This document shows positions 15,484 to 25,590 of a stretch of DNA of 64,000 nt, piece after piece (the stretch's first letter is position 1; each line of letters opens with the position of its first letter). Source of the stretch: Desulfatibacillum sp. Its GTDB lineage: Bacteria > Desulfobacterota > Desulfobacteria > Desulfobacterales > SpSt-501. The stretch lies in the NCBI GenBank assembly GCA_020725555.1, contig DYEU01000026.1:1-64000 (forward strand). The letters run 5' to 3'. Under the pieces are notes generated by a model. That model worked only from the letters and a program-made list of their open reading frames with translations. It was not told the DNA's origin and searched no databases. The translations under genes were made by a program, and so were the position numbers.

Positions 15484-17880
15484 CTACAGGTCGATCGTGT
15501 TCGTGCTGGAGAGGACGTTCGAGGCCCCGAGGCCGGCGGCCGGCGGCGGGGCGCCGAGCAGGCGGGCCTCGATCTCCCGGCGCGCCGGCTCGATCCAGCC
15601 GAACACCCGGCGCACGAGGGCCGCCGTCCGCGCGTCGGGGGCTTTCTCGAGGAAGCCTTTCTCCTCGCGGCGGATCTGGTCGAGGAGCAGGAGGTCGGTT
15701 TCGCCGCCGATGCGGCCGATGCCGCGGATCAGGACCGCGAGGTGCTGCAGCAGCCCGGCGTGCAGGGAGAGGGCGGCGGCCCCGCGGTGCACGGCGGCGT
15801 CGGCCTTGCCGTAGAGCGACAGCCCGGTGTGCAGGATCGAGGCGGCCGTGTCGCCCCCGACCAGGGCGAGCAGGATGTGCTCTTCGCGCTCGAGCGCCAG
15901 CAGGAACCGGGCCGGTAGACCGGAAATCCCGGCCGTCGCGGGATCGAGGGCCGCGGCGAGGCTTTTGCGGATCGTCTGCGCCTTGGCGAGGAAGCGGCGC
16001 GATTCGTTCTTCACCCTCCAGAGGGCGTAGGCGACGGCCCGCTCGTCCAGCCCGTCCCGCACCCGGAGGATCTCCTCCGGCGTGAGTTCGATGTCGACGT
16101 TGATCTCCTTGTTGTAGCGCCGCAGGAACTGGATCGCGAGCATGAGGGCGTTGCGGTCCGGGTATTCGACCCGCGCCGGGTCGCCCACGAAATCCGCGAG
16201 CACGATGCGCAGGCCCTGAAGCGGCTGGCGCGTCTCCTTGATCACGAGCTGCAGCGCGTTCAGGAAGGGCAGCCGGTCGGCGCGGCGCGGCATCTCGCGC
16301 AGAAACTCCCACAGGACGGCGAAGACCTTTTTCGGAAAGCGCGCGAGATCGGGCACGCGCTTCTCGAAGAGCGACCGCTGGAAGTTGCCGCGGCCGTCGA
16401 AACAGGAACGGAAGAGGCGCAGAATCGCCTCCATCTCCTCAGGCGGGAGCTCGAAGGCGGCAGCGAGCGCCCCCGCGTCGCGGGCGAGGTAGAGCGGCTC
16501 CCCGTCCCTCCCGGCGCGCAGGCGGCGGCGTGCCGCGGCGCGGTCCTTGGCGAGGTCGACGGCGCGGGCCATCGGTGCCGACACCTTGCCGACCTCCTGC
16601 TCGGCGCCGTCGCGCCAGATTTTCAGGCGCCCGCTGTCCACGGCGAGGTCGCCCAGGGTCTCCGCCGGGAGCCGGTCCAGGTTCTCCTGCAGCCGCTGCA
16701 GCACGCCCTCGAGCAGGGGGGCCGCGGCCGGCCGGGCTTCGAGAACCTGCACGAGGCGGCCGATGTCGCGGAGCCGTTCGCCAAGCCCCCCGAGGTCGAG
16801 CCCCCCGTAATCGCCGCCCAGGAGCCCCTCCGCACCCCGCTGCGCGGCCGCCCGGTGCTCGGCCGGCAGCCGGCCGAAGAAGGCGGCCAGGCCGGCGGCG
16901 ATCTCCGCGGCGGCCGGGGCGGGGGCGGCGGCCGCCTGCGCCGGCGAAGCCTCCGCGGGGGCCGGCGCGGGGGACCCGCGCTCCGCCGGCGGGGCGGGGG
17001 CGGCCGCGGCGTGCGGCGCCGCGCCGGCTTCGGCCCCGGCCGCGGGGGCCCGCTCGCGGCCGACCTCGAGCGGCGGCCGCCGCAGGGCCTCGCGCAGGCG
17101 GCGAAGGGCGAAGATCGCCCGGTAGACGTCGGGCGCCTGCCGCCTGAGCGAGGCCCCCTCCGGCCGCTTGAGCAGCCCGGCCACCCGGGCGACGATCGTC
17201 TTCAAGGCCTCCGGCGCGAGGTCGTTTTCGGCGGCGAGGAGCGTCAGGTTGGGGTCGGGGCGGCCGAGATCGTCGGCCACCGGCAGGACCTGGCGCGGCC
17301 GGCCGTCGCGCACGAAGGGGATCGCCGTTCCCTTCTCCGCGGCCTGGCGGTGGCCGGCGAGGATGCGCACGGCGGCGCGGAGGGAGTCGAGCGCCTCGGG
17401 GGATTCCCCCGGCAGCCGGATCTCCAGCCGATCGAACCCCTCGGCGGCGAGCATTTCCGCCGCCTTGAAGAAGCGGCCTTCCAGGTGCTTCAGGCGGATC
17501 CCCGCGCGGCGGATGAGGGCGGTCACCTGCGCGCCGTCGACGTGGAGCTCGCCCAGGCGCACCTCGAGGTCGGGCCGCGGCCCGCCGGGTCCGGGGGCCG
17601 GTCGCAGGCGGCGGATGCGCAGGATGCCGTCCCCGGAGGGCGCCCGGCCGAGCTCCTGCAGCACGGCGGCGAGCTGGGGGAAGCTGTCCTTCCCGGCCCG
17701 CATCCCCTCCCAGTAGAGGACGTCGCGAAAGCAGGCGTTGAGGAGATAGACGGCCTCGACCAGCCGCATCCGCAGGGCATCCTGCGACTCGGCCGCCCCG
17801 TCCTCGGCGGCGCGGCCGGCCTCCTCCGGCGCAGAAAACCCCTGCAGCTCCTCGAGCAGCCGTGAGGCGAGATCGTCCAT
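15484..17880 (-). CDS. Large protein of unknown function
   Basis: I do not recognise this 798-residue protein. It appears to be cytoplasmic, with no signal peptide or membrane helix. Residues 1-265 are mixed alpha/beta, including ILRIRRLRPAPGPGG and a LYLLNACFRDVLYWEG-like helix. Residues of about 270-335 form a low-complexity Ala/Pro linker. Residues 340-798 are strongly helical and rich in Leu/Arg, with the notable stretch KKVFAVLWEFLREMPRRADR and a final SSTNTIDL. The two-lobe, helical-repeat look suggests a scaffold or regulatory role, but nothing specific. It is encoded 58 bases after dapB on the same strand. Confidence 0.75.
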   Translation of the reverse strand: MDDLASRLLEELQGFSAPEEAGRAAEDGAAESQDALRMRLVEAVYLLNACFRDVLYWEGMRAGKDSFPQLAAVLQELGRAPSGDGILRIRRLRPAPGPGGPRPDLEVRLGELHVDGAQVTALIRRAGIRLKHLEGRFFKAAEMLAAEGFDRLEIRLPGESPEALDSLRAAVRILAGHRQAAEKGTAIPFVRDGRPRQVLPVADDLGRPDPNLTLLAAENDLAPEALKTIVARVAGLLKRPEGASLRRQAPDVYRAIFALRRLREALRRPPLEVGRERAPAAGAEAGAAPHAAAAPAPPAERGSPAPAPAEASPAQAAAAPAPAAAEIAAGLAAFFGRLPAEHRAAAQRGAEGLLGGDYGGLDLGGLGERLRDIGRLVQVLEARPAAAPLLEGVLQRLQENLDRLPAETLGDLAVDSGRLKIWRDGAEQEVGKVSAPMARAVDLAKDRAAARRRLRAGRDGEPLYLARDAGALAAAFELPPEEMEAILRLFRSCFDGRGNFQRSLFEKRVPDLARFPKKVFAVLWEFLREMPRRADRLPFLNALQLVIKETRQPLQGLRIVLADFVGDPARVEYPDRNALMLAIQFLRRYNKEINVDIELTPEEILRVRDGLDERAVAYALWRVKNESRRFLAKAQTIRKSLAAALDPATAGISGLPARFLLALEREEHILLALVGGDTAASILHTGLSLYGKADAAVHRGAAALSLHAGLLQHLAVLIRGIGRIGGETDLLLLDQIRREEKGFLEKAPDARTAALVRRVFGWIEPARREIEARLLGAPPPAAGLGASNVLSSTNTIDL

Positions 17881-17938: not shown

Positions 17939-18808
17939 TCAAGGGGTGTTTTCGGCCGCCGGGGGCGATTTCTTGAGGGGCTTCCCTTCCAGGACGTCGA
18001 TCATGGAAAAGATCCGGCCGCGGGCGCCCTCCCGCAGCCGGTCGCGCAGAAAGACCAGGGCGTCGAGGGTCCCCTGGACGTAGACGTCCCGGCCGTTCAC
18101 GCGGTGGGTGAATTCGAAGCAGACCGTTTCGTCCTCCGAGACCAGGCGGTAGGTGTGCCAGGCATGGCCGCCGAGGTAGGCCTCCGGCACGCCGAGCCGG
18201 GTCCGCTGCTCCTGCGGGTCGCGCACCCGGCGGATCTCCTCCTCGCGGAAGGGGACCCCCAGGCGGTTGAAGACGGCGACGAGGGCCCGCGCCGTGCCCG
18301 AGGTGTCGGCCTTGCCCTGCTGGTGGCTCTCCTCGATCGTCAGGCGGAAGCCGCGGAACAGCCCCGGAAACCGCTCGGCCGCCGCCTCCATCATGGCCTG
18401 GAAGCCGACGATCGGCCGGGCCATGTTGGGCGCGACCACGGCGGCGACGGGGGAGGCGGCGACCAGCGCCTCGAGCGCCCGGCGATCGCCGCCGGTCGTG
18501 CCCATGACGAAGGGCAGGCCGTGGCGGCAGTAAAAGGCGGCGTTCGGCACGACGGCCGCGGGGTGGGTGTAGTCGACGCACAGCACCTCCGGCCAGGCGG
18601 CGCGAATCTCGGCGATCGCGGCCTCGCGCGCCTCGGGCCGCACGAGCCGCACCCGGACCGCGCCGATCGGCTGCTCGGCGGCCGCGATGTCGGGCCCCGT
18701 GAGCGCATAGGGGACGAGCCGGAAGCGGGGGTCCGCGGCCAGGCGCAGGGCGACCTGCGAGGCGATCCGGCCGGGGATCCCGTTCACCATGACGGCGATG
18801 GGCTCCAT
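17939..18808 (-). CDS. dapB: 4-hydroxy-tetrahydrodipicolinate reductase, plant type
   Basis: DapB makes tetrahydrodipicolinate for lysine and diaminopimelate (peptidoglycan) synthesis. The 289-residue protein has the nucleotide-binding MVNGIPGRIASQVA, VDYTHPAAVVPNAAFYCRHG and the substrate-loop IEESHQQGKADTSGTA with Lys and Gly-Thr. The MVNG opening and spacing match the plant-like DapB subfamily (TIGR02130 type) rather than the E. coli one. The start at 18808 lies 11 bases after the MurU-AmgK stop. Confidence 0.9.
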   Translation of the reverse strand: MEPIAVMVNGIPGRIASQVALRLAADPRFRLVPYALTGPDIAAAEQPIGAVRVRLVRPEAREAAIAEIRAAWPEVLCVDYTHPAAVVPNAAFYCRHGLPFVMGTTGGDRRALEALVAASPVAAVVAPNMARPIVGFQAMMEAAAERFPGLFRGFRLTIEESHQQGKADTSGTARALVAVFNRLGVPFREEEIRRVRDPQEQRTRLGVPEAYLGGHAWHTYRLVSEDETVCFEFTHRVNGRDVYVQGTLDALVFLRDRLREGARGRIFSMIDVLEGKPLKKSPPAAENTP

Positions 18809-18819
18809 CGGGCACCTCC

Positions 18820-20556
18820 TCAGGGGCCGCCGGCCAAGCCGGCGGCGGGATGGCGGGGCCCCGGCGGGACCCCGGAACGGAGGCGTTCCGCCGCGCGGGC
18901 GACGGTCGCCTCGAGATGCGGGAAGGCCGCGGGGGAGCGCTCCGCGAGGAGCGCCGCGAGCCCCCGCAGGGCGGGTTCGATATAGCGGGCGAAGGCGGCC
19001 TTGCCTTTCGCCGTGGCCAGAAAGGCGAAGGCCCCGAGCATCTGCAGGCTGCGCGCGACGGCGCAGGCGGAGTACCCGCGGCGGAAGGCCCTGGGGTCGA
19101 CCGGCCGCCGGGCGGCGAGGCGCTCCAGGGCGTAGGCGAGCAGGGCCTCCCGCTCCGCGGGGCCGAGCCCCACGTAGGGGTCGAGCAGGAGCGAGGCGAG
19201 ATCGTAGGCGAAGGGGCCGATCCGCGCCCCCTGGAAGTCGATCAGGCGGCAGCGGCCGCCCCGGAGGAGGATGTTCCGCGACTGGAAGTCGCGGTGCATC
19301 AGCCCGGCGGGCTCGGCGCCGGCGGCGAGGTCGGCCAACCGCGCGAAATCGGAGGCGAGCGCGCCGCGATCGAAGGGGAGCCCCGCGAAGCCTTCGAGGA
19401 AGGCCTCGCCGAAGTAGCGGCACTCGCGCTCGAGGACGAGGGCCCGGTCGTAGCGCGGGGTCTGCCAGCACCAGGCGGGGTCGAAGCCCTCGATGCCGCG
19501 CTGCGAGAAGTCGACCAGCGTGTCGATCGCCTCGCGGTAGAGCGCAAGCCGCTCCGCCGGCCCCGCCGCGCCGCGGGCCGCCTCCTGCAGGTGCAGGTCG
19601 CCCAGGTCCTCGACCCAGACCAGCCCCGCGAACGGCTCCGCGAAATGGATGCGCGGCACGGGCAGCCCTTGCGCCGCCAGGTGGCGGCCGATGCGCACAA
19701 AGGCCTCCGCCTCGCTCACCCCGCCCCCCGGGGGGCTCAGGCCGTGGTCGGCGAGGACGAGCGTGCGGGGGGTGTCCCCCACGCGGTACCACCGGCGATC
19801 GGAGCCGTCGCCCGCGAGGGGGGTCCAGGAGACCCCCGGCGGCGGCTCCCCCCCGAAGGCGTCCCGCCAGGCCTCGGCGAGCGATTCCCGACGGCAGATC
19901 TCGCGGTAGCGCGGGACCGTGCCCGCGTCGGCCCAGTCCGCGGCCGGGGCGACCCAGGCGGCGAGGCGCCGGCCGCGGGCGATCATCTCCCGGAAGGCGT
20001 CGATGCTGTGGGCGAACCCCTCGGCCGGGAGGAAGTCGAGGACGGCGGGTTCGAGGACCTGGACGCCGCTGAAGGCGAGCGCACCGGGCGCCCCGGGGGC
20101 GTCGAAGCCGCGGATGTGCCCTGTGGCGTCGACCTCCACCCGGTTGCATTCGGGGGCGTCGATCAGCACGAGCGTCGCGTCCGGCCGCGAGCGGCGGTGG
20201 GTTTCCCAGATGCGGCGCAAGGGGAAGCGGTGGACGACGTCGGCGTTGATCACGAAGAAGGGGCGCCCGTCCCAGAAATCGCGCAGGTTGGCGATCGCCC
20301 CGCCCGTCCCCCGCAGCACCGGCTCCCGCCGCACCAGCACGGGGATCCCCCAGGAGCGCGAGCGCACGAAGGCCTCGATCGCCTCCGCCCGGTGGTGGGC
20401 GTTCACGGCCACCGCCTCGCAGCCGGCCTGCGCGAGCGCGGTGAGCTGCCGCTCGAGGAGGGGGCGGCCCGCGACGGGGAAGAGGGCCTTGGGCAGCGCC
20501 TCCGAGTAGGGCCGGAGCCGGGTCCCGTGGCCCGCGGCGAGGACCAGGGCCTTCAT
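18820..20556 (-). CDS. Bifunctional MurU-AmgK: MurNAc-1-P uridylyltransferase fused to anomeric MurNAc/GlcNAc kinase
   Basis: Residues 1-222 are a sugar-1-phosphate nucleotidyltransferase (LAAGHGTRLRPYSEALPKAL, VINADVV), MurU-like. Residues 240-578 are an aminoglycoside-phosphotransferase-fold kinase with the catalytic HRDFQSRN (421-428) and metal-binding LIDFQGARIGPFAYDLASLL (438-457), closely resembling AmgK. Separate AmgK and MurU in Pseudomonas turn recycled MurNAc into MurNAc-1-P and then UDP-MurNAc, bypassing MurA and giving intrinsic fosfomycin tolerance. The fusion would do both steps. The ATG at 20556 overlaps the plsB stop; upstream reading of this frame is antisense-like and was discarded. 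Exact sugar specificity is inferred. Confidence 0.85.
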   Translation of the reverse strand: MKALVLAAGHGTRLRPYSEALPKALFPVAGRPLLERQLTALAQAGCEAVAVNAHHRAEAIEAFVRSRSWGIPVLVRREPVLRGTGGAIANLRDFWDGRPFFVINADVVHRFPLRRIWETHRRSRPDATLVLIDAPECNRVEVDATGHIRGFDAPGAPGALAFSGVQVLEPAVLDFLPAEGFAHSIDAFREMIARGRRLAAWVAPAADWADAGTVPRYREICRRESLAEAWRDAFGGEPPPGVSWTPLAGDGSDRRWYRVGDTPRTLVLADHGLSPPGGGVSEAEAFVRIGRHLAAQGLPVPRIHFAEPFAGLVWVEDLGDLHLQEAARGAAGPAERLALYREAIDTLVDFSQRGIEGFDPAWCWQTPRYDRALVLERECRYFGEAFLEGFAGLPFDRGALASDFARLADLAAGAEPAGLMHRDFQSRNILLRGGRCRLIDFQGARIGPFAYDLASLLLDPYVGLGPAEREALLAYALERLAARRPVDPRAFRRGYSACAVARSLQMLGAFAFLATAKGKAAFARYIEPALRGLAALLAERSPAAFPHLEATVARAAERLRSGVPPGPRHPAAGLAGGP

Positions 20557-23195
20557 CCGCCCTCCCGCAGCGCCCGCAGCGCGCGCTCGATCGACGCCGC
20601 GCAGCCGTGGAGCCACGCCTCCCGGTCGGCCTCGCGCGCGGCGCGCGCCGCAAACCAGGCGGCGGCGTTCTCGAGGCTCACGCGCGAGAGCGCCTCCGGC
20701 AGGTCGATCACGCGGTCGTTGAGCAGCGTGCGGCCGAGGGCCACGAGCGCGCGGGCCCGCTCGCGGCCGCGTTCCTCGAAAGCGCACGGGTCGTGGAGCA
20801 TCCCGGCGAGGGCGACGCGGTAGGCCTCCAGGGCGCTCTTCAGAAACAGGGCGAAGCGGCGCAGCGTGCGGTAGCCGGCCGCGGTGAGGTTGAAGGTGTC
20901 GGCGAGGCTCGGGTGGGGGACCAGGGCGGCGCGGCGCACGAAAAACCCGAGGCTTTCGGCGACGAGCTCCTCCTCGGGCCGCTCGGGGTCGCCGACGAAC
21001 TCGAGCTCGAGCAGCTCGCGCAGGAAGGCCGTCTCCGCGGGAAGCCCCTCGGCCGAGAACTGGAAGGCGTCCTGCGCGAGGATCGCCAGCGCCGTGTACG
21101 CGGCGGGGAGGAAGAAATGGACGCAGGTGTTCTTGTAGTACTCGAGCCGGGGACGGCGCATCGGCCGCAACAGGTAGCCTTCCCCGGAGCCTTCCTCGCC
21201 GGGGACGGCGGCCCCGCGGGGCTCGAGGATGCGCCGCTGGACGTAGTCCCCGAAGGCCTCGAACACGGCCCGGCGGGGGTCGGTGAGCAGCGTGTCGGCG
21301 AGCCGCACCCCCCGTTCCTCGAGGTAGGCGAGGTACTCCTCGACCCCGTGCCGGACCTCCTCGCGCGTGAAGCGTTCCCGGCCGGCGTGGAGCAGCGCCG
21401 CCGCCACCAGCGCGTGGGCGGTCACCACGCCGGCGCGGTTGATCTCCTCGGCGACCCGCCGGGCGGTCCGCCGCACGAAGTCCCGGAAGGCCTCGGGCTC
21501 CATGGCCGCAAGCGGGGTGCCTTCCCGGTTTTCGAGCTCGCGCAGCGACACGGGCGTGCCGAACTGGACGTAGACGTCGCCGTGCCGGCGCTTGAGCGCC
21601 TTGCGGGCCCGCAGCAGCTCGCCGAGCGACTCCGGGCGTTTCTGGCCGCCTTCGATTTCGTGCAGGTAGGAGGACTCCTCGGGGACGCGGTCGTAGCCGA
21701 TCGCCACCGGCGCGAGGATCAAGTCCTCGCAGGCGCCGTCGCGGTAGGCGGAGAGCAGCATGGCGAGCAGCCCCAGCCGCGGCACGAGCATCTTGCCCGT
21801 GCGGCTGCGGCCGCCCTCGATGAACTGCTCGATGCAGTAGCCCGCTTCCAGGACGGTGTGGAGGTACTCGGCGAAGACCCGGGCGTAGAGCGGCGCCCCC
21901 CGGAAGGTGCGCCGGATGAAAAACGCGCCGCCGCGGCGGAAGAGGGGGCCGAGCGGCCAGAAGGAAAGGTTTTTGCCGGCGGCGACGAGCGGGCAGGTGA
22001 GGTCGTGGTGGTAGACCACGTAGGAGAGGAGCAGGTAGTCGGCGTGGCTGCGGTGGGCGGGCAGGTAGACGACCGGGCCGCGCACGGCGAGCCGCTTGAC
22101 GGCCTCGAGCCCCTCGCGGTTGACGCGGATCCCCGCGAAGAGCGAGCGCAGGATCCAGCCGTCGATCCCCGAGTAGAACCGGATCCACCCGGGCCGCTGG
22201 TCGGCCGCGATCTCGTCGAGGAAGGCCTCGGCGGCGCGGCGCGCCTCGTCCCAGGAGAGGCCCCGGGCGGCGGCGTGCTCGCGCAGGAATTCCTGGAAGC
22301 GCCGCCGGTTGAGGACCCGTTCCCGGATCTCCTCGCGCGACACCGGCACCGGCCCGGTGATGCTGCGGCGGTGGCGCCGGACGAGGTCGAGGATCTCCCC
22401 GGCCAGGAGGGCGGCCTGGAAGGCGGGCGGCCGCCCGGCCAGGTCGGGGCGGGCGAGGAACGCGCTAAGATCGATGGGCGAGGAGACCTCGACGAAGGCG
22501 CGGCCGGGGTGGTGAAAGAGGCCGTAGAGGAGCCGCAGGGGGCCGGGGCGGTCCTCGGGGCCGAAGAGGAGGTCCACCCACCGCAGCCGGCCGGGCGGGG
22601 GCGACTTGCTGAAGAAGACGATCTGCGGGACGAGCAGCACGGGGCGGCCGGTGCGGCGGTGAAAGGCGATCAGGCCGGCGAGCGCGTCGGGGGCCTCCCG
22701 GCCGCGGCGCAGGCGAAGGCGCCGCCGCGGGGGCGCGAGCGCGGCGAAGGCGGCGCGGGCCTCGCCAAGGGGAGCATCCCCTCCGTCTCCGGCCGCCTCC
22801 TCCCCGCCCGCGGCGTTCTGCGGACCCGCCGGGGGCGGGGTGCGGATGCCGACCGCCCACCCGGCCAGGCCGGCCCCGCAGCCCAGGAGGGCGCGGGGGG
22901 CGGGCAGCCCGAGCGCGGCGTAGCGGGTGCAGGCGAAGAGCAGGGAAAAGAGGCTCCCGGCCGGGTCCACGTAGATCACCAGAGCCTCGCCGGGGAGGTC
23001 CCGCAGCCGGGCCTGCTGGCTTTCCTCGAAGCGCACCCCGGAGAAGAACAGCCGCAGGGCGAGGGCCGTGAACCGGCCGAAGCGCTCGGGGATCGCATGC
23101 AGGCAGAGGTCTTCCGGGCGGCCGCCCGGACGCGCGGGCCGCCTTCGCAGGCGTTGCCGCCGAAGCGGCGGCAGGGGCGGGGACTCGGCGTTCAT
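20553..23195 (-). CDS. plsB: Glycerol-3-phosphate 1-O-acyltransferase PlsB
   Basis: PlsB performs the first acylation in membrane phospholipid synthesis. The 880-residue protein is slightly longer than E. coli PlsB (about 807). It contains the HX4D catalytic motif HRSHAD (381-386), FIEGGRSRTGKM (about 454-465), and the PlsB-like substrate-binding blocks VAIGYDRVPEESSYLHEI and VYVQFGTPVSLRE. The N-terminal 200 residues are Arg/Pro-rich and poorly conserved. It is the first gene of the minus-strand block and overlaps the MurU-AmgK start by 4 bases. Confidence 0.92.
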   Translation of the reverse strand: MNAESPPLPPLRRQRLRRRPARPGGRPEDLCLHAIPERFGRFTALALRLFFSGVRFEESQQARLRDLPGEALVIYVDPAGSLFSLLFACTRYAALGLPAPRALLGCGAGLAGWAVGIRTPPPAGPQNAAGGEEAAGDGGDAPLGEARAAFAALAPPRRRLRLRRGREAPDALAGLIAFHRRTGRPVLLVPQIVFFSKSPPPGRLRWVDLLFGPEDRPGPLRLLYGLFHHPGRAFVEVSSPIDLSAFLARPDLAGRPPAFQAALLAGEILDLVRRHRRSITGPVPVSREEIRERVLNRRRFQEFLREHAAARGLSWDEARRAAEAFLDEIAADQRPGWIRFYSGIDGWILRSLFAGIRVNREGLEAVKRLAVRGPVVYLPAHRSHADYLLLSYVVYHHDLTCPLVAAGKNLSFWPLGPLFRRGGAFFIRRTFRGAPLYARVFAEYLHTVLEAGYCIEQFIEGGRSRTGKMLVPRLGLLAMLLSAYRDGACEDLILAPVAIGYDRVPEESSYLHEIEGGQKRPESLGELLRARKALKRRHGDVYVQFGTPVSLRELENREGTPLAAMEPEAFRDFVRRTARRVAEEINRAGVVTAHALVAAALLHAGRERFTREEVRHGVEEYLAYLEERGVRLADTLLTDPRRAVFEAFGDYVQRRILEPRGAAVPGEEGSGEGYLLRPMRRPRLEYYKNTCVHFFLPAAYTALAILAQDAFQFSAEGLPAETAFLRELLELEFVGDPERPEEELVAESLGFFVRRAALVPHPSLADTFNLTAAGYRTLRRFALFLKSALEAYRVALAGMLHDPCAFEERGRERARALVALGRTLLNDRVIDLPEALSRVSLENAAAWFAARAAREADREAWLHGCAASIERALRALREGG

Positions 23196-23749: not shown

Positions 23750-24406
23750 TCAGCCCGTTTTCCTCTCCCGGATCGCCCGCACGGCGAGGCGATCGGCGAG
23801 CTCGTTTTCGGCAACACCGCGGTGGCCGGGGACCTTGACCAGCGTAAGCCTCGGGAACGCCTGCATTTCCTTGCGGATGGCCGCGATCAGCGCGCGGTTC
23901 TTTTCCGCCTTCCAGCCGAGCGTCAGCACCCCGTAGGCGTAGTGGCTGTCGGTGTAGAGCACGACCGGCCGGCTCTTGTCGCGCACCGCGGCCAGCCCGG
24001 TGCGGATGGCGGTCAACTCGGCGATGTTGTTGGTCGCCTCGCCGATGTAGGCCGAGATCTCGCGCCGCCGCCCGCCGCAGACGAGCACCACCCCGATGCC
24101 GGCCGGGCCGGGGTTCCCGGAGCAGGCGCCGTCGGTGTAGATGTGGATCGCCTCCGGCTCGGACGCCTCCGCCTCCCCCCCGGCGGCCGGGGCGGGGGGC
24201 GGCCCCGCGAGCGGCTGCAGCCGCTCGGCCGGCACGCGGTAGTCCCGCGGGTCCTCGAGGCGGTAGCGGATGCGCACCCGGCCGCCGCGGGCGAGCGGCC
24301 GCCCATCCGGGTGCGTCTCGGCCCAGACCTTGCATTTTCCGAACCCCATCCGGCTCCAGGTGCTCCCCCAGGCCGGGACGCATTCGGGGCGGCTGTCGCG
24401 GGCCAT
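23750..24406 (-). CDS. rnhA: Ribonuclease HI with N-terminal RNA/DNA-hybrid-binding-like extension
   Basis: The RNase H domain occupies about residues 80-218, with acidic catalytic residues in IYTDGACSGNPG (Asp), NNIAELTAI (Glu), VVLYTDSHYAYGVL (Asp) and the C-terminal GVAENELADRLA (Asp). It removes RNA from RNA/DNA hybrids. The first 75 residues include GFGKCKVWAETHPDG and may form a small extra domain; this part is not recognised with confidence. Length is 218 residues against about 155 for the minimal enzyme. It lies 8 bases after namZ, which is transcribed first. Confidence 0.93.
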   Translation of the reverse strand: MARDSRPECVPAWGSTWSRMGFGKCKVWAETHPDGRPLARGGRVRIRYRLEDPRDYRVPAERLQPLAGPPPAPAAGGEAEASEPEAIHIYTDGACSGNPGPAGIGVVLVCGGRRREISAYIGEATNNIAELTAIRTGLAAVRDKSRPVVLYTDSHYAYGVLTLGWKAEKNRALIAAIRKEMQAFPRLTLVKVPGHRGVAENELADRLAVRAIRERKTG

Positions 24407-24414
24407 CGTCCCCC

Positions 24415-25590
24415 TCACGCGTAGAGGTGCACCGCCCGGCTCGCCGCGCGGAACTCCTCGAGCTCCCCGCGCCAGGAGGCCTCGAGCCGCTCGACCGGCT
24501 CCAGGGCCTCGAGGCGGCGCCGCAGCCCGGCATCCCCGATCAAGAGATCGATCGGCGGGCGCTCGAACTCGTACTCGTAGGGGGGCGGGCGCCAGGCGAA
24601 ATCCCGCGGGTGCGCGGCGAGGACCGCCTGGAGCAGCCGCAAGGTGGTCGCGTAGGGGCGGTAGCGGTCGGCGTCGGTCACGTGGAGCTGGAAGCCGCGG
24701 CAGGGGCGGCCGCACCATTTTTGGGCCGTGGGCTCGAAGACGACCGGCCGCAGGAAGACCCCCGGCAGGCTCCCCTCGGGAAAGCGCGCGGCGAGCGCGC
24801 GGACGTCGAGGAAAGGGGCGCCGAAGAGCTCGAAGGGCTGGGTCGTCCCCCGCCCCTCGGAGACGTTGGTTCCCTCCCAGAGCACCTGGCCGGGGTAGAC
24901 GCTGGCGGCGGCATAGGACGGCAAGTTGGGCGAGGGGGGGATCCAGGGCAGGCCGGTCTCCGGGAAGCGCAGCGAGCGGCCCCAGCCGCGCATCGGGATC
25001 CAGCGCAGCTCGCAGGCGATGCCCCCGGGGCCGGCGATCCAGCGGCCGAGTTCGGCGAAGGTCATCCCGTGGCGCATCGGCAGGGGAAAGCGGCCCACGA
25101 ACGAGGCGCACTCCGGCCGCAGGAGGTTGCCTTCGACCTCGGCGCCTCCCAGGGGGTTGGGGCGGTCGAGCACCACCACCGGGATGCCCGCCGCGCCGGC
25201 CGTCTCCATGCAGTGGGCGAGGGTCGAGGCGAAGGTGTAGACCCGCGTGCCGGCGTCCTGGAGATCGACCACGAGCGCGTCGAGCCCCGCGAACATCGCG
25301 GCGGTGGGAACCCGCGTTTTGCCGTAGAGGCTGAAGACGGGCAGCCCGAGCTCGGGATCGACCCCGTCGTCGGATTCGATCATGTTGTCCTGCTTTTCGG
25401 CCCAGAAGCCGTGCTGGGGCGAAAAGAGGGCGCGCAGCCGGCCCCCGAAGCGCTCCCGGAGGAGCGTGCGCGCGTGGCGGAGCCGGCGGTCGACCGAGGC
25501 CGGGTTGCAAAGCAGCCCGAAGCGCAGACCCCGGAACCACGCGGGCGGGTCGGCGAGCAGCCGCTCCAGGCCGGTCTCGACGGTGGGCAT
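24415..25590 (-). CDS. namZ: Exo-beta-N-acetylmuramidase NamZ (DUF1343 family)
   Basis: The 391-residue DUF1343 protein has the family blocks GLLCNPASVD, LFSPQHGFWAEKQDNMI, VVDLQDAGTRVYTF, VVLDRPNPLGG, MRHGMTFAELGRW and GTNVSEGRGTTQPFELFGAPF. NamZ (GH171) removes MurNAc from the non-reducing ends of peptidoglycan fragments. No signal peptide is present. A TTGCCG-18-TACAAG promoter ends 6 bases before this ATG, which supports the start, so the protein appears cytoplasmic, unlike secreted relatives. Its product would feed the MurU-AmgK fusion encoded about 4 kb away. Confidence 0.9.
   Translation of the reverse strand: MPTVETGLERLLADPPAWFRGLRFGLLCNPASVDRRLRHARTLLRERFGGRLRALFSPQHGFWAEKQDNMIESDDGVDPELGLPVFSLYGKTRVPTAAMFAGLDALVVDLQDAGTRVYTFASTLAHCMETAGAAGIPVVVLDRPNPLGGAEVEGNLLRPECASFVGRFPLPMRHGMTFAELGRWIAGPGGIACELRWIPMRGWGRSLRFPETGLPWIPPSPNLPSYAAASVYPGQVLWEGTNVSEGRGTTQPFELFGAPFLDVRALAARFPEGSLPGVFLRPVVFEPTAQKWCGRPCRGFQLHVTDADRYRPYATTLRLLQAVLAAHPRDFAWRPPPYEYEFERPPIDLLIGDAGLRRRLEALEPVERLEASWRGELEEFRAASRAVHLYA

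What the first reader, a model, noticed from the sequence alone, without database searches (positions are those of the whole stretch)
18820..20556. MurU and AmgK fused into one MurNAc-to-UDP-MurNAc salvage enzyme
Sequence shows an N-terminal nucleotidyltransferase (LAAGHGTRLRPYSEALPKAL) joined in frame to an AmgK-like kinase with HRDFQSRN and LIDFQGARIGPFAYDL. In Pseudomonas these steps are two proteins. The fusion would channel MurNAc-1-P directly and bypass MurA, predicting intrinsic fosfomycin tolerance.
Basis: partly seen in the sequence, partly recalled or inferred. Interest (0 to 1): 0.72.

Follow-up and report, generated by a model that had tools for sequence, protein, structure and literature searches.

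The report
Fused MurU-AmgK cell-wall salvage enzyme
In a large group of sulfate-reducing-type bacteria (Desulfobacterales) the two enzymes that turn the cell-wall sugar MurNAc back into the building block UDP-MurNAc are one protein, usually encoded near an apparently cytosolic enzyme that releases MurNAc, which suggests a compact cell-wall recycling route not found in the papers I could search.

Summary
Window 18820-20556 (minus strand) is one 578-aa reading frame: a MurU-like nucleotidyltransferase (aa 1-220), a short linker, and an AmgK-like APH-fold kinase (aa 244-540). It is not an artefact: a similar fusion is found in nearly all of 58 genomes of the same order (Desulfobacterales by named relatives). 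Neighbouring Desulfobacterota carry murU and amgK as two adjacent genes. By HMM, tree, fold and residues the halves are divergent MurU and AmgK, far below NCBI's curated cut-offs, as are the Bacteroidota relatives. The substrate is inferred, not shown. So free MurNAc is probably made in the cytosol by NamZ (and/or NagZ) and converted by the fusion to UDP-MurNAc. Channelling and fosfomycin tolerance are untested; the genome's MurA keeps the fosfomycin-target cysteine. Verdict: a new variant of a known enzyme pair, of moderate interest.

The parts
18820..20556 (-). fused murU-amgK gene, 578 aa plus stop
   Evidence: single open frame; conserved as one frame across the order
19897..20556 (-). MurU-like nucleotidyltransferase domain (aa 1-220); G-x-G-T-R...PK, N52, E78, D106, D210
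   Evidence: PF00483; best NCBIfam NF045761; clade with MurU; residues; fold 4y7t/4y7v
19828..19896 (-). interdomain linker (aa 221-243), conserved length
   Evidence: spacing 32-40 aa between G212 and G249 in 27 aligned fusions
18937..19827 (-). AmgK-like APH-fold kinase domain (aa 244-540); HRDFQSRN, IDFQ
   Evidence: PF01636; best NCBIfam NF045698/NF045759; 3csv Z 29.8
24415..25590 (-). NamZ, exo-beta-N-acetylmuramidase, no leader peptide; likely source of free MurNAc
   Evidence: PF07075 253.8 bits and PF20732 166.8 bits; N-termini; upstream of the fusion in 36 of 47 fused loci with at least 6.5 kb upstream
20553..23195 (-). PlsB-like glycerol-3-phosphate acyltransferase, overlaps the fusion's start by ATGA; conserved neighbour, no inferred role
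23750..24406 (-). RNase H domain protein between namZ and plsB; conserved neighbour, no inferred role
17939..18808 (-). dapB (plant-type dihydrodipicolinate reductase), 11 bp downstream; its product feeds diaminopimelate synthesis
   Evidence: TIGR02130 315.8 bits, above cut-off; conserved downstream

Best explanation
The protein is a bifunctional MurNAc salvage enzyme. The C-terminal AmgK-type kinase phosphorylates the anomeric hydroxyl of free MurNAc with ATP to give MurNAc-alpha-1-phosphate, and the N-terminal MurU-type domain transfers UMP from UTP to give UDP-MurNAc. The MurNAc most likely arises in the cytosol, released by the clustered leaderless NamZ and/or by NagZ from imported GlcNAc-MurNAc, because the anhydro-MurNAc kinase AnmK and the MurNAc-6P etherase MurQ were not found. 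Shown here: the fusion, its conservation, domain identity by HMM, tree, fold and residues, the namZ linkage, and no AnmK or MurQ above cut-off. Inferred: substrates, direction of flux, cytosolic NamZ. Not tested: channelling.
For: Best family matches for both halves are MurU and AmgK. In the plasmid collection, all 20 hits of the kinase half at E 5e-6 or better are AmgK-type loci of lineages such as Acinetobacter, Neisseria, Bacteroides and Rhizobiaceae, many next to a MurU-like gene, and no annotated resistance kinase. N half in one clade with PpMurU and PaMurU, SH-aLRT 96. MurU is the top PDB fold match, TM 0.86-0.90 of the target. Catalytic and base-pocket residues N52, E78, D106, D210 as in MurU; GMPP has Ala at 52. 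namZ in the cluster here, in 36 of 47 fused loci, and, in an otherwise different neighbourhood (DnaJ-NamZ-LpxD-FabZ-LpxA-LpxI-MurU-AmgK-Der), beside the unfused genes. NamZ in 55 of 58 genomes; AnmK 0 of 58 and MurQ 0 of 58 above cut-off; NagZ family 55 of 58 and AmpG 49 of 58. Precedent: Tannerella forsythia, a MurNAc auxotroph with no predicted AnmK, is described as using AmgK and MurU, and its AmpG imports GlcNAc-MurNAc (PMC7670621).
Against: Scores are far below the NCBIfam equivalog cut-offs: 109.6 vs 250 (MurU) and 81 vs 500 (AmgK), so the substrate may have shifted. N52 and E78 are also present in heptose-type relatives, so they are not unique to MurU. The kinase tree contained only AmgK-type references, no other APH kinases. 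In Desulfobulbales the unfused pair sits in a lipid A operon, so another hexosamine is possible. MupP was not searched. No biochemical data exist for this clade in the papers held.
Confidence: 0.8

Rival explanations
1. The fusion is a general N-acetylhexosamine salvage enzyme whose main substrate is GlcNAc or another amino sugar, making a UDP-sugar for lipid A, polysaccharide or peptidoglycan.
For: The matching family is named MurNAc/GlcNAc kinase; NamZ would release GlcNAc as well as MurNAc; the unfused pair lies in an LPS operon in Desulfobulbales.
Against: The N half groups with MurU, not with RmlA- or GMPP-type enzymes. The linkage to namZ recurs in two different neighbourhoods.
Confidence: 0.12
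2. It is an unrelated sugar-kinase plus NDP-sugar pyrophosphorylase pair, for example making GDP-mannose or GDP-heptose from the free sugar.
For: The second family of the N half is mannose-1-phosphate guanylyltransferase (86.9 bits), and GMPP structures rank close behind MurU.
Against: GMPP and heptose-type enzymes fall outside the MurU clade. GMPP has Ala at position 52. The kinase half matches AmgK alone.
Confidence: 0.06
3. One of the two domains is no longer catalytic and the fusion is a regulatory or moonlighting protein.
For: None found.
Against: H421, D423, N428, D440, N52, E78, D106 and D210 are invariant in the 27 aligned fusions.
Confidence: 0.02

Closest known systems
MurU (N-acetylmuramate alpha-1-phosphate uridylyltransferase), Pseudomonas; PDB 4y7t, 8hhd
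   Same: fold, nucleotidyltransferase signature, metal-binding Asp, Asn in the base pocket, clade membership
   Different: about 32-34% identity; fused to the kinase; score below the curated cut-off
AmgK (anomeric MurNAc/GlcNAc kinase), Pseudomonas and Caulobacter
   Same: APH fold, HRDxxxxN and IDFQ motifs, best family match
   Different: 81 of 500 bits; C-terminal to MurU, whereas the reference pairs fetched run amgK then murU
Bacteroidota amgK (with a RapZ C-terminal-like domain) next to murU
   Same: the kinase is closer to this one than to the proteobacterial AmgK (HMM 174-207 vs 79-128 bits); Tannerella also lacks a predicted AnmK (PMC7670621)
   Different: kinase fused to a RapZ-like domain instead of MurU
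Unfused murU + amgK of Desulfobulbales and other Desulfobacterota
   Same: adjacent genes in the same order MurU then AmgK; same clades
   Different: two genes; MurU there carries an extra C-terminal extension with hexapeptide-like repeats that this fusion lacks
NamZ exo-beta-N-acetylmuramidase (B. subtilis founder)
   Same: both NamZ Pfam domains over full length
   Different: no leader peptide here; the Bacillus enzyme is secreted (own knowledge)

Membership tests
MurU | nucleotidyltransferase signature G-x-G-x-R...PK and metal Asp residues | tested here: met
   G9, G11, R13, P22, K23, D106, D210 in all 32 fused rows
MurU | phylogenetic grouping with characterised MurU rather than GMPP, HddC-like or RmlA | tested here: met
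   SH-aLRT 96 for the 68-row MurU group, quick tree, no bootstrap
MurU | NCBIfam equivalog score cut-off (annotation threshold) | tested here: not met
   109.6 of 250 bits; Bacteroidota (146) and Legionella (238) homologues also miss it
MurU | UDP-MurNAc formation from MurNAc-1P and UTP | not testable with these tools
   needs enzyme assay
AmgK | APH fold with HRDxxxxN and D(F)Q catalytic motifs | tested here: met
   PF01636 above cut-off; invariant in 27 aligned fusions; 3csv Z 29.8, rmsd 2.6 over 311
AmgK | NCBIfam equivalog score cut-off (annotation threshold) | tested here: not met
   81 of 500 and 77 of 550 bits, but next kinase family only 18 bits; Legionella 263 and Sphingomonas 243 also miss it
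AmgK | grouping with AmgK apart from other APH-fold kinases in a tree | not tested
   the tree held no other APH kinases; only indirect support
AmgK | ATP-dependent phosphorylation of MurNAc at C1 | not testable with these tools
   needs enzyme assay
Pseudomonas-type anhMurNAc recycling route (AnmK-MupP-AmgK-MurU) | AnmK present | tested here: not met
   0 of 58 genomes above cut-off, controls ring
Pseudomonas-type anhMurNAc recycling route (AnmK-MupP-AmgK-MurU) | MupP present | not tested
   not searched
E. coli-type MurQ route | MurQ etherase present | tested here: not met
   best 28.5 bits of 302 in 58 genomes

The most novel reading that the evidence does not exclude
Desulfobacterales use a third MurNAc recycling layout: GlcNAc-MurNAc or MurNAc-GlcNAc fragments reach the cytosol, a cytosolic NamZ (with NagZ) frees unmodified MurNAc, and a bifunctional AmgK-MurU fusion makes UDP-MurNAc in one protein, with no anhydro-MurNAc kinase, no MurNAc-6P etherase and no MurNAc-6P intermediate.
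Probability: 0.4. Interest if true: 0.55.

Novelty: new variant of a known kind. Interest (0 to 1): 0.4.

Why it matters
It would extend the MurU salvage shunt to a major environmental lineage with an arrangement I did not find in the papers held, supply a single-protein catalyst from MurNAc to UDP-MurNAc (useful for cell-wall probes), and point to NamZ instead of AnmK as the source of MurNAc. It also shows that NCBI's curated MurU and AmgK models miss this clade, so surveys based on those cut-offs undercount the pathway.

Tried and rejected
Sequencing error or chance read-through joining two genes: rejected, conserved across the order. Some apparent fusions elsewhere in the phylum (frames of about 650 aa) proved on reading to be adjacent genes with a stop between (L182, L184, L185); one, G213 (L183), is a real 584-aa open frame while its family member G260 (L181) is split by one stop. 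One PDB search used an out-of-frame reference and gave nonsense hits, repeated correctly. The MurU structure paper and the NamZ founding paper are not held. No held paper joins MurU and AmgK with Deltaproteobacteria or NamZ with MurNAc and muramidase. A search for fosfomycin data in Desulfovibrio gave only incidental hits by title and abstract; none was read. Distance and facing of the two active sites were not measured, because I had no model coordinates.

Full report
Observation. The frame at 18820-20556 on the minus strand encodes 578 aa without a break. Pfam places an NTP_transferase domain at aa 2-220 and an APH domain at aa 244-483, both well above cut-off. The ATG overlaps the stop of a plsB-like gene and dapB starts 11 bp after the stop, so it is probably one operon.

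Reality of the fusion. In 58 genomes of the same order, from about 52 families, most carry a protein matching across both domains. G011, G017, G041 and G044 lack a clear one. The distance between the two domains is nearly constant, and 26 relatives align at 34-76% identity to this one with intact catalytic residues. Named relatives are Desulfobacterales/Desulfobacteraceae and cultured Desulfobacter latus. In Desulfobulbaceae and other Desulfobacterota the same two proteins are adjacent separate genes in the order murU, amgK. The separate MurU is longer and carries an extension with hexapeptide-like repeats that the fusion lacks. An apparently independent fusion exists in G213, whose family member G260 differs by a single stop between the halves.

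Identity of the halves. NCBIfam ranks MurU first for the N half (109.6 bits against 86.9 for mannose-1-P guanylyltransferase) and AmgK first and second for the C half (81 and 77 bits against 18 for the next kinase). None reaches the curated cut-off, but neither do the Bacteroidota, Legionella and Sphingomonas homologues tested alongside. With the kinase half as query, the plasmid collection, rich in aminoglycoside kinases, returned only 22 records; all but two at the weak end (Ruegeria and Paracoccus, E about 6e-3) are AmgK-type loci, many beside a MurU-like gene. In a maximum-likelihood tree the N halves form one group with Desulfobacterota, Bacteroidota and proteobacterial MurU, including the crystallised P. 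putida and P. aeruginosa enzymes (SH-aLRT 96), apart from GMPP, heptose-type and RmlA-type sequences. The kinase tree shows the fused kinases next to unfused Desulfobacterota and then Bacteroidota kinases, but it had no outside APH kinases, so it cannot prove AmgK membership. The model (pLDDT 92.8, pTM 0.90) matches MurU best in Foldseek; in VIA-align 3csv scores Z 29.8 for the kinase and MurU 28.3, tied with GMPP and tlr0611. The base-pocket Asn that the HddC authors treat as the MurU residue (PMC6981941) is N52 here and invariant; GMPP has Ala, but heptose-type relatives also have Asn.

Surroundings and pathway. The cluster korAB / namZ - RNase H - plsB - fusion - dapB ... alaS - recA is conserved over many families. 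NamZ is upstream in 36 of 47 fused loci with enough sequence; some genomes are counted twice because two searches reached them. In Desulfopila the unfused genes sit in DnaJ - NamZ - LpxD - FabZ - LpxA - LpxI - MurU - AmgK - Der; NamZ is upstream in 6 of 15 unfused loci with enough sequence. The link of NamZ to the pair therefore survives a complete change of other neighbours. These NamZ proteins begin about 20 residues before the first conserved block with no hydrophobic leader, so they are probably cytosolic; no signal-peptide program was available. Over the 58 genomes NamZ is in 55, NagZ-family in 55, AmpG in 49, AnmK in none and MurQ in none above cut-off. Two of the four genomes without a clear fusion also lack NamZ (G011, G041); with incomplete genomes this is weak support.

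Mechanism. The simplest reading is that imported fragments are trimmed in the cytosol to MurNAc by NamZ and/or NagZ, and that the fusion phosphorylates and uridylylates it to UDP-MurNAc. T. forsythia is a precedent: MurNAc auxotroph, no predicted AnmK, AmgK and MurU proposed to make UDP-MurNAc, AmpG importing GlcNAc-MurNAc (PMC7670621). Its AmgK and MurU also support MurNAc-probe labelling in E. coli (PMC13041923).

Fosfomycin. The genome has one clear MurA with the target cysteine in LPGGCAIGARP, so the de novo route should be sensitive. In Pseudomonas and Caulobacter loss of the shunt raises sensitivity (PMC5371409, PMC13046382). Some tolerance is thus a fair prediction but nothing here measures it.

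Judgement. The enzyme pair is known; the fusion with MurU first, its fixation in an order, and the NamZ-linked, AnmK-less setting are the new elements.

Noticed in passing
window 24415-25590 (-) and L036-L055, L121-L132: NamZ proteins of this phylum lack a leader peptide, unlike the secreted Bacillus enzyme (own knowledge), suggesting a cytosolic exo-muramidase.
   Followed up: partly
G002:C8, G004:C116, G005:C399, G006:C107: Members of the same genus have a second NamZ-domain protein in frames of about 605-780 aa, away from the fusion; domain content not examined.
   Followed up: no
window 17939-18808 (-): DapB here is of the plant type (TIGR02130, 315.8 bits, above cut-off) and scores below the usual bacterial dapB cut-off (61 of 122 bits).
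   Followed up: no
window 15484-17880 (-): A 798-aa protein between alaS and dapB has no Pfam match; homologues lie at the same place in some relatives (L036, L038, L060, L099).
   Followed up: no
L181 (G260) and L183 (G213): In another Desulfobacterota family murU and amgK are in frame, separated by one stop codon in one genome and fused in another: an apparent fusion by stop loss.
   Followed up: partly
L163 (G007:C24:12541-13380): A second APH kinase in one Desulfobacterales genome groups with the alphaproteobacterial AmgK type; its neighbours were not checked.
   Followed up: no
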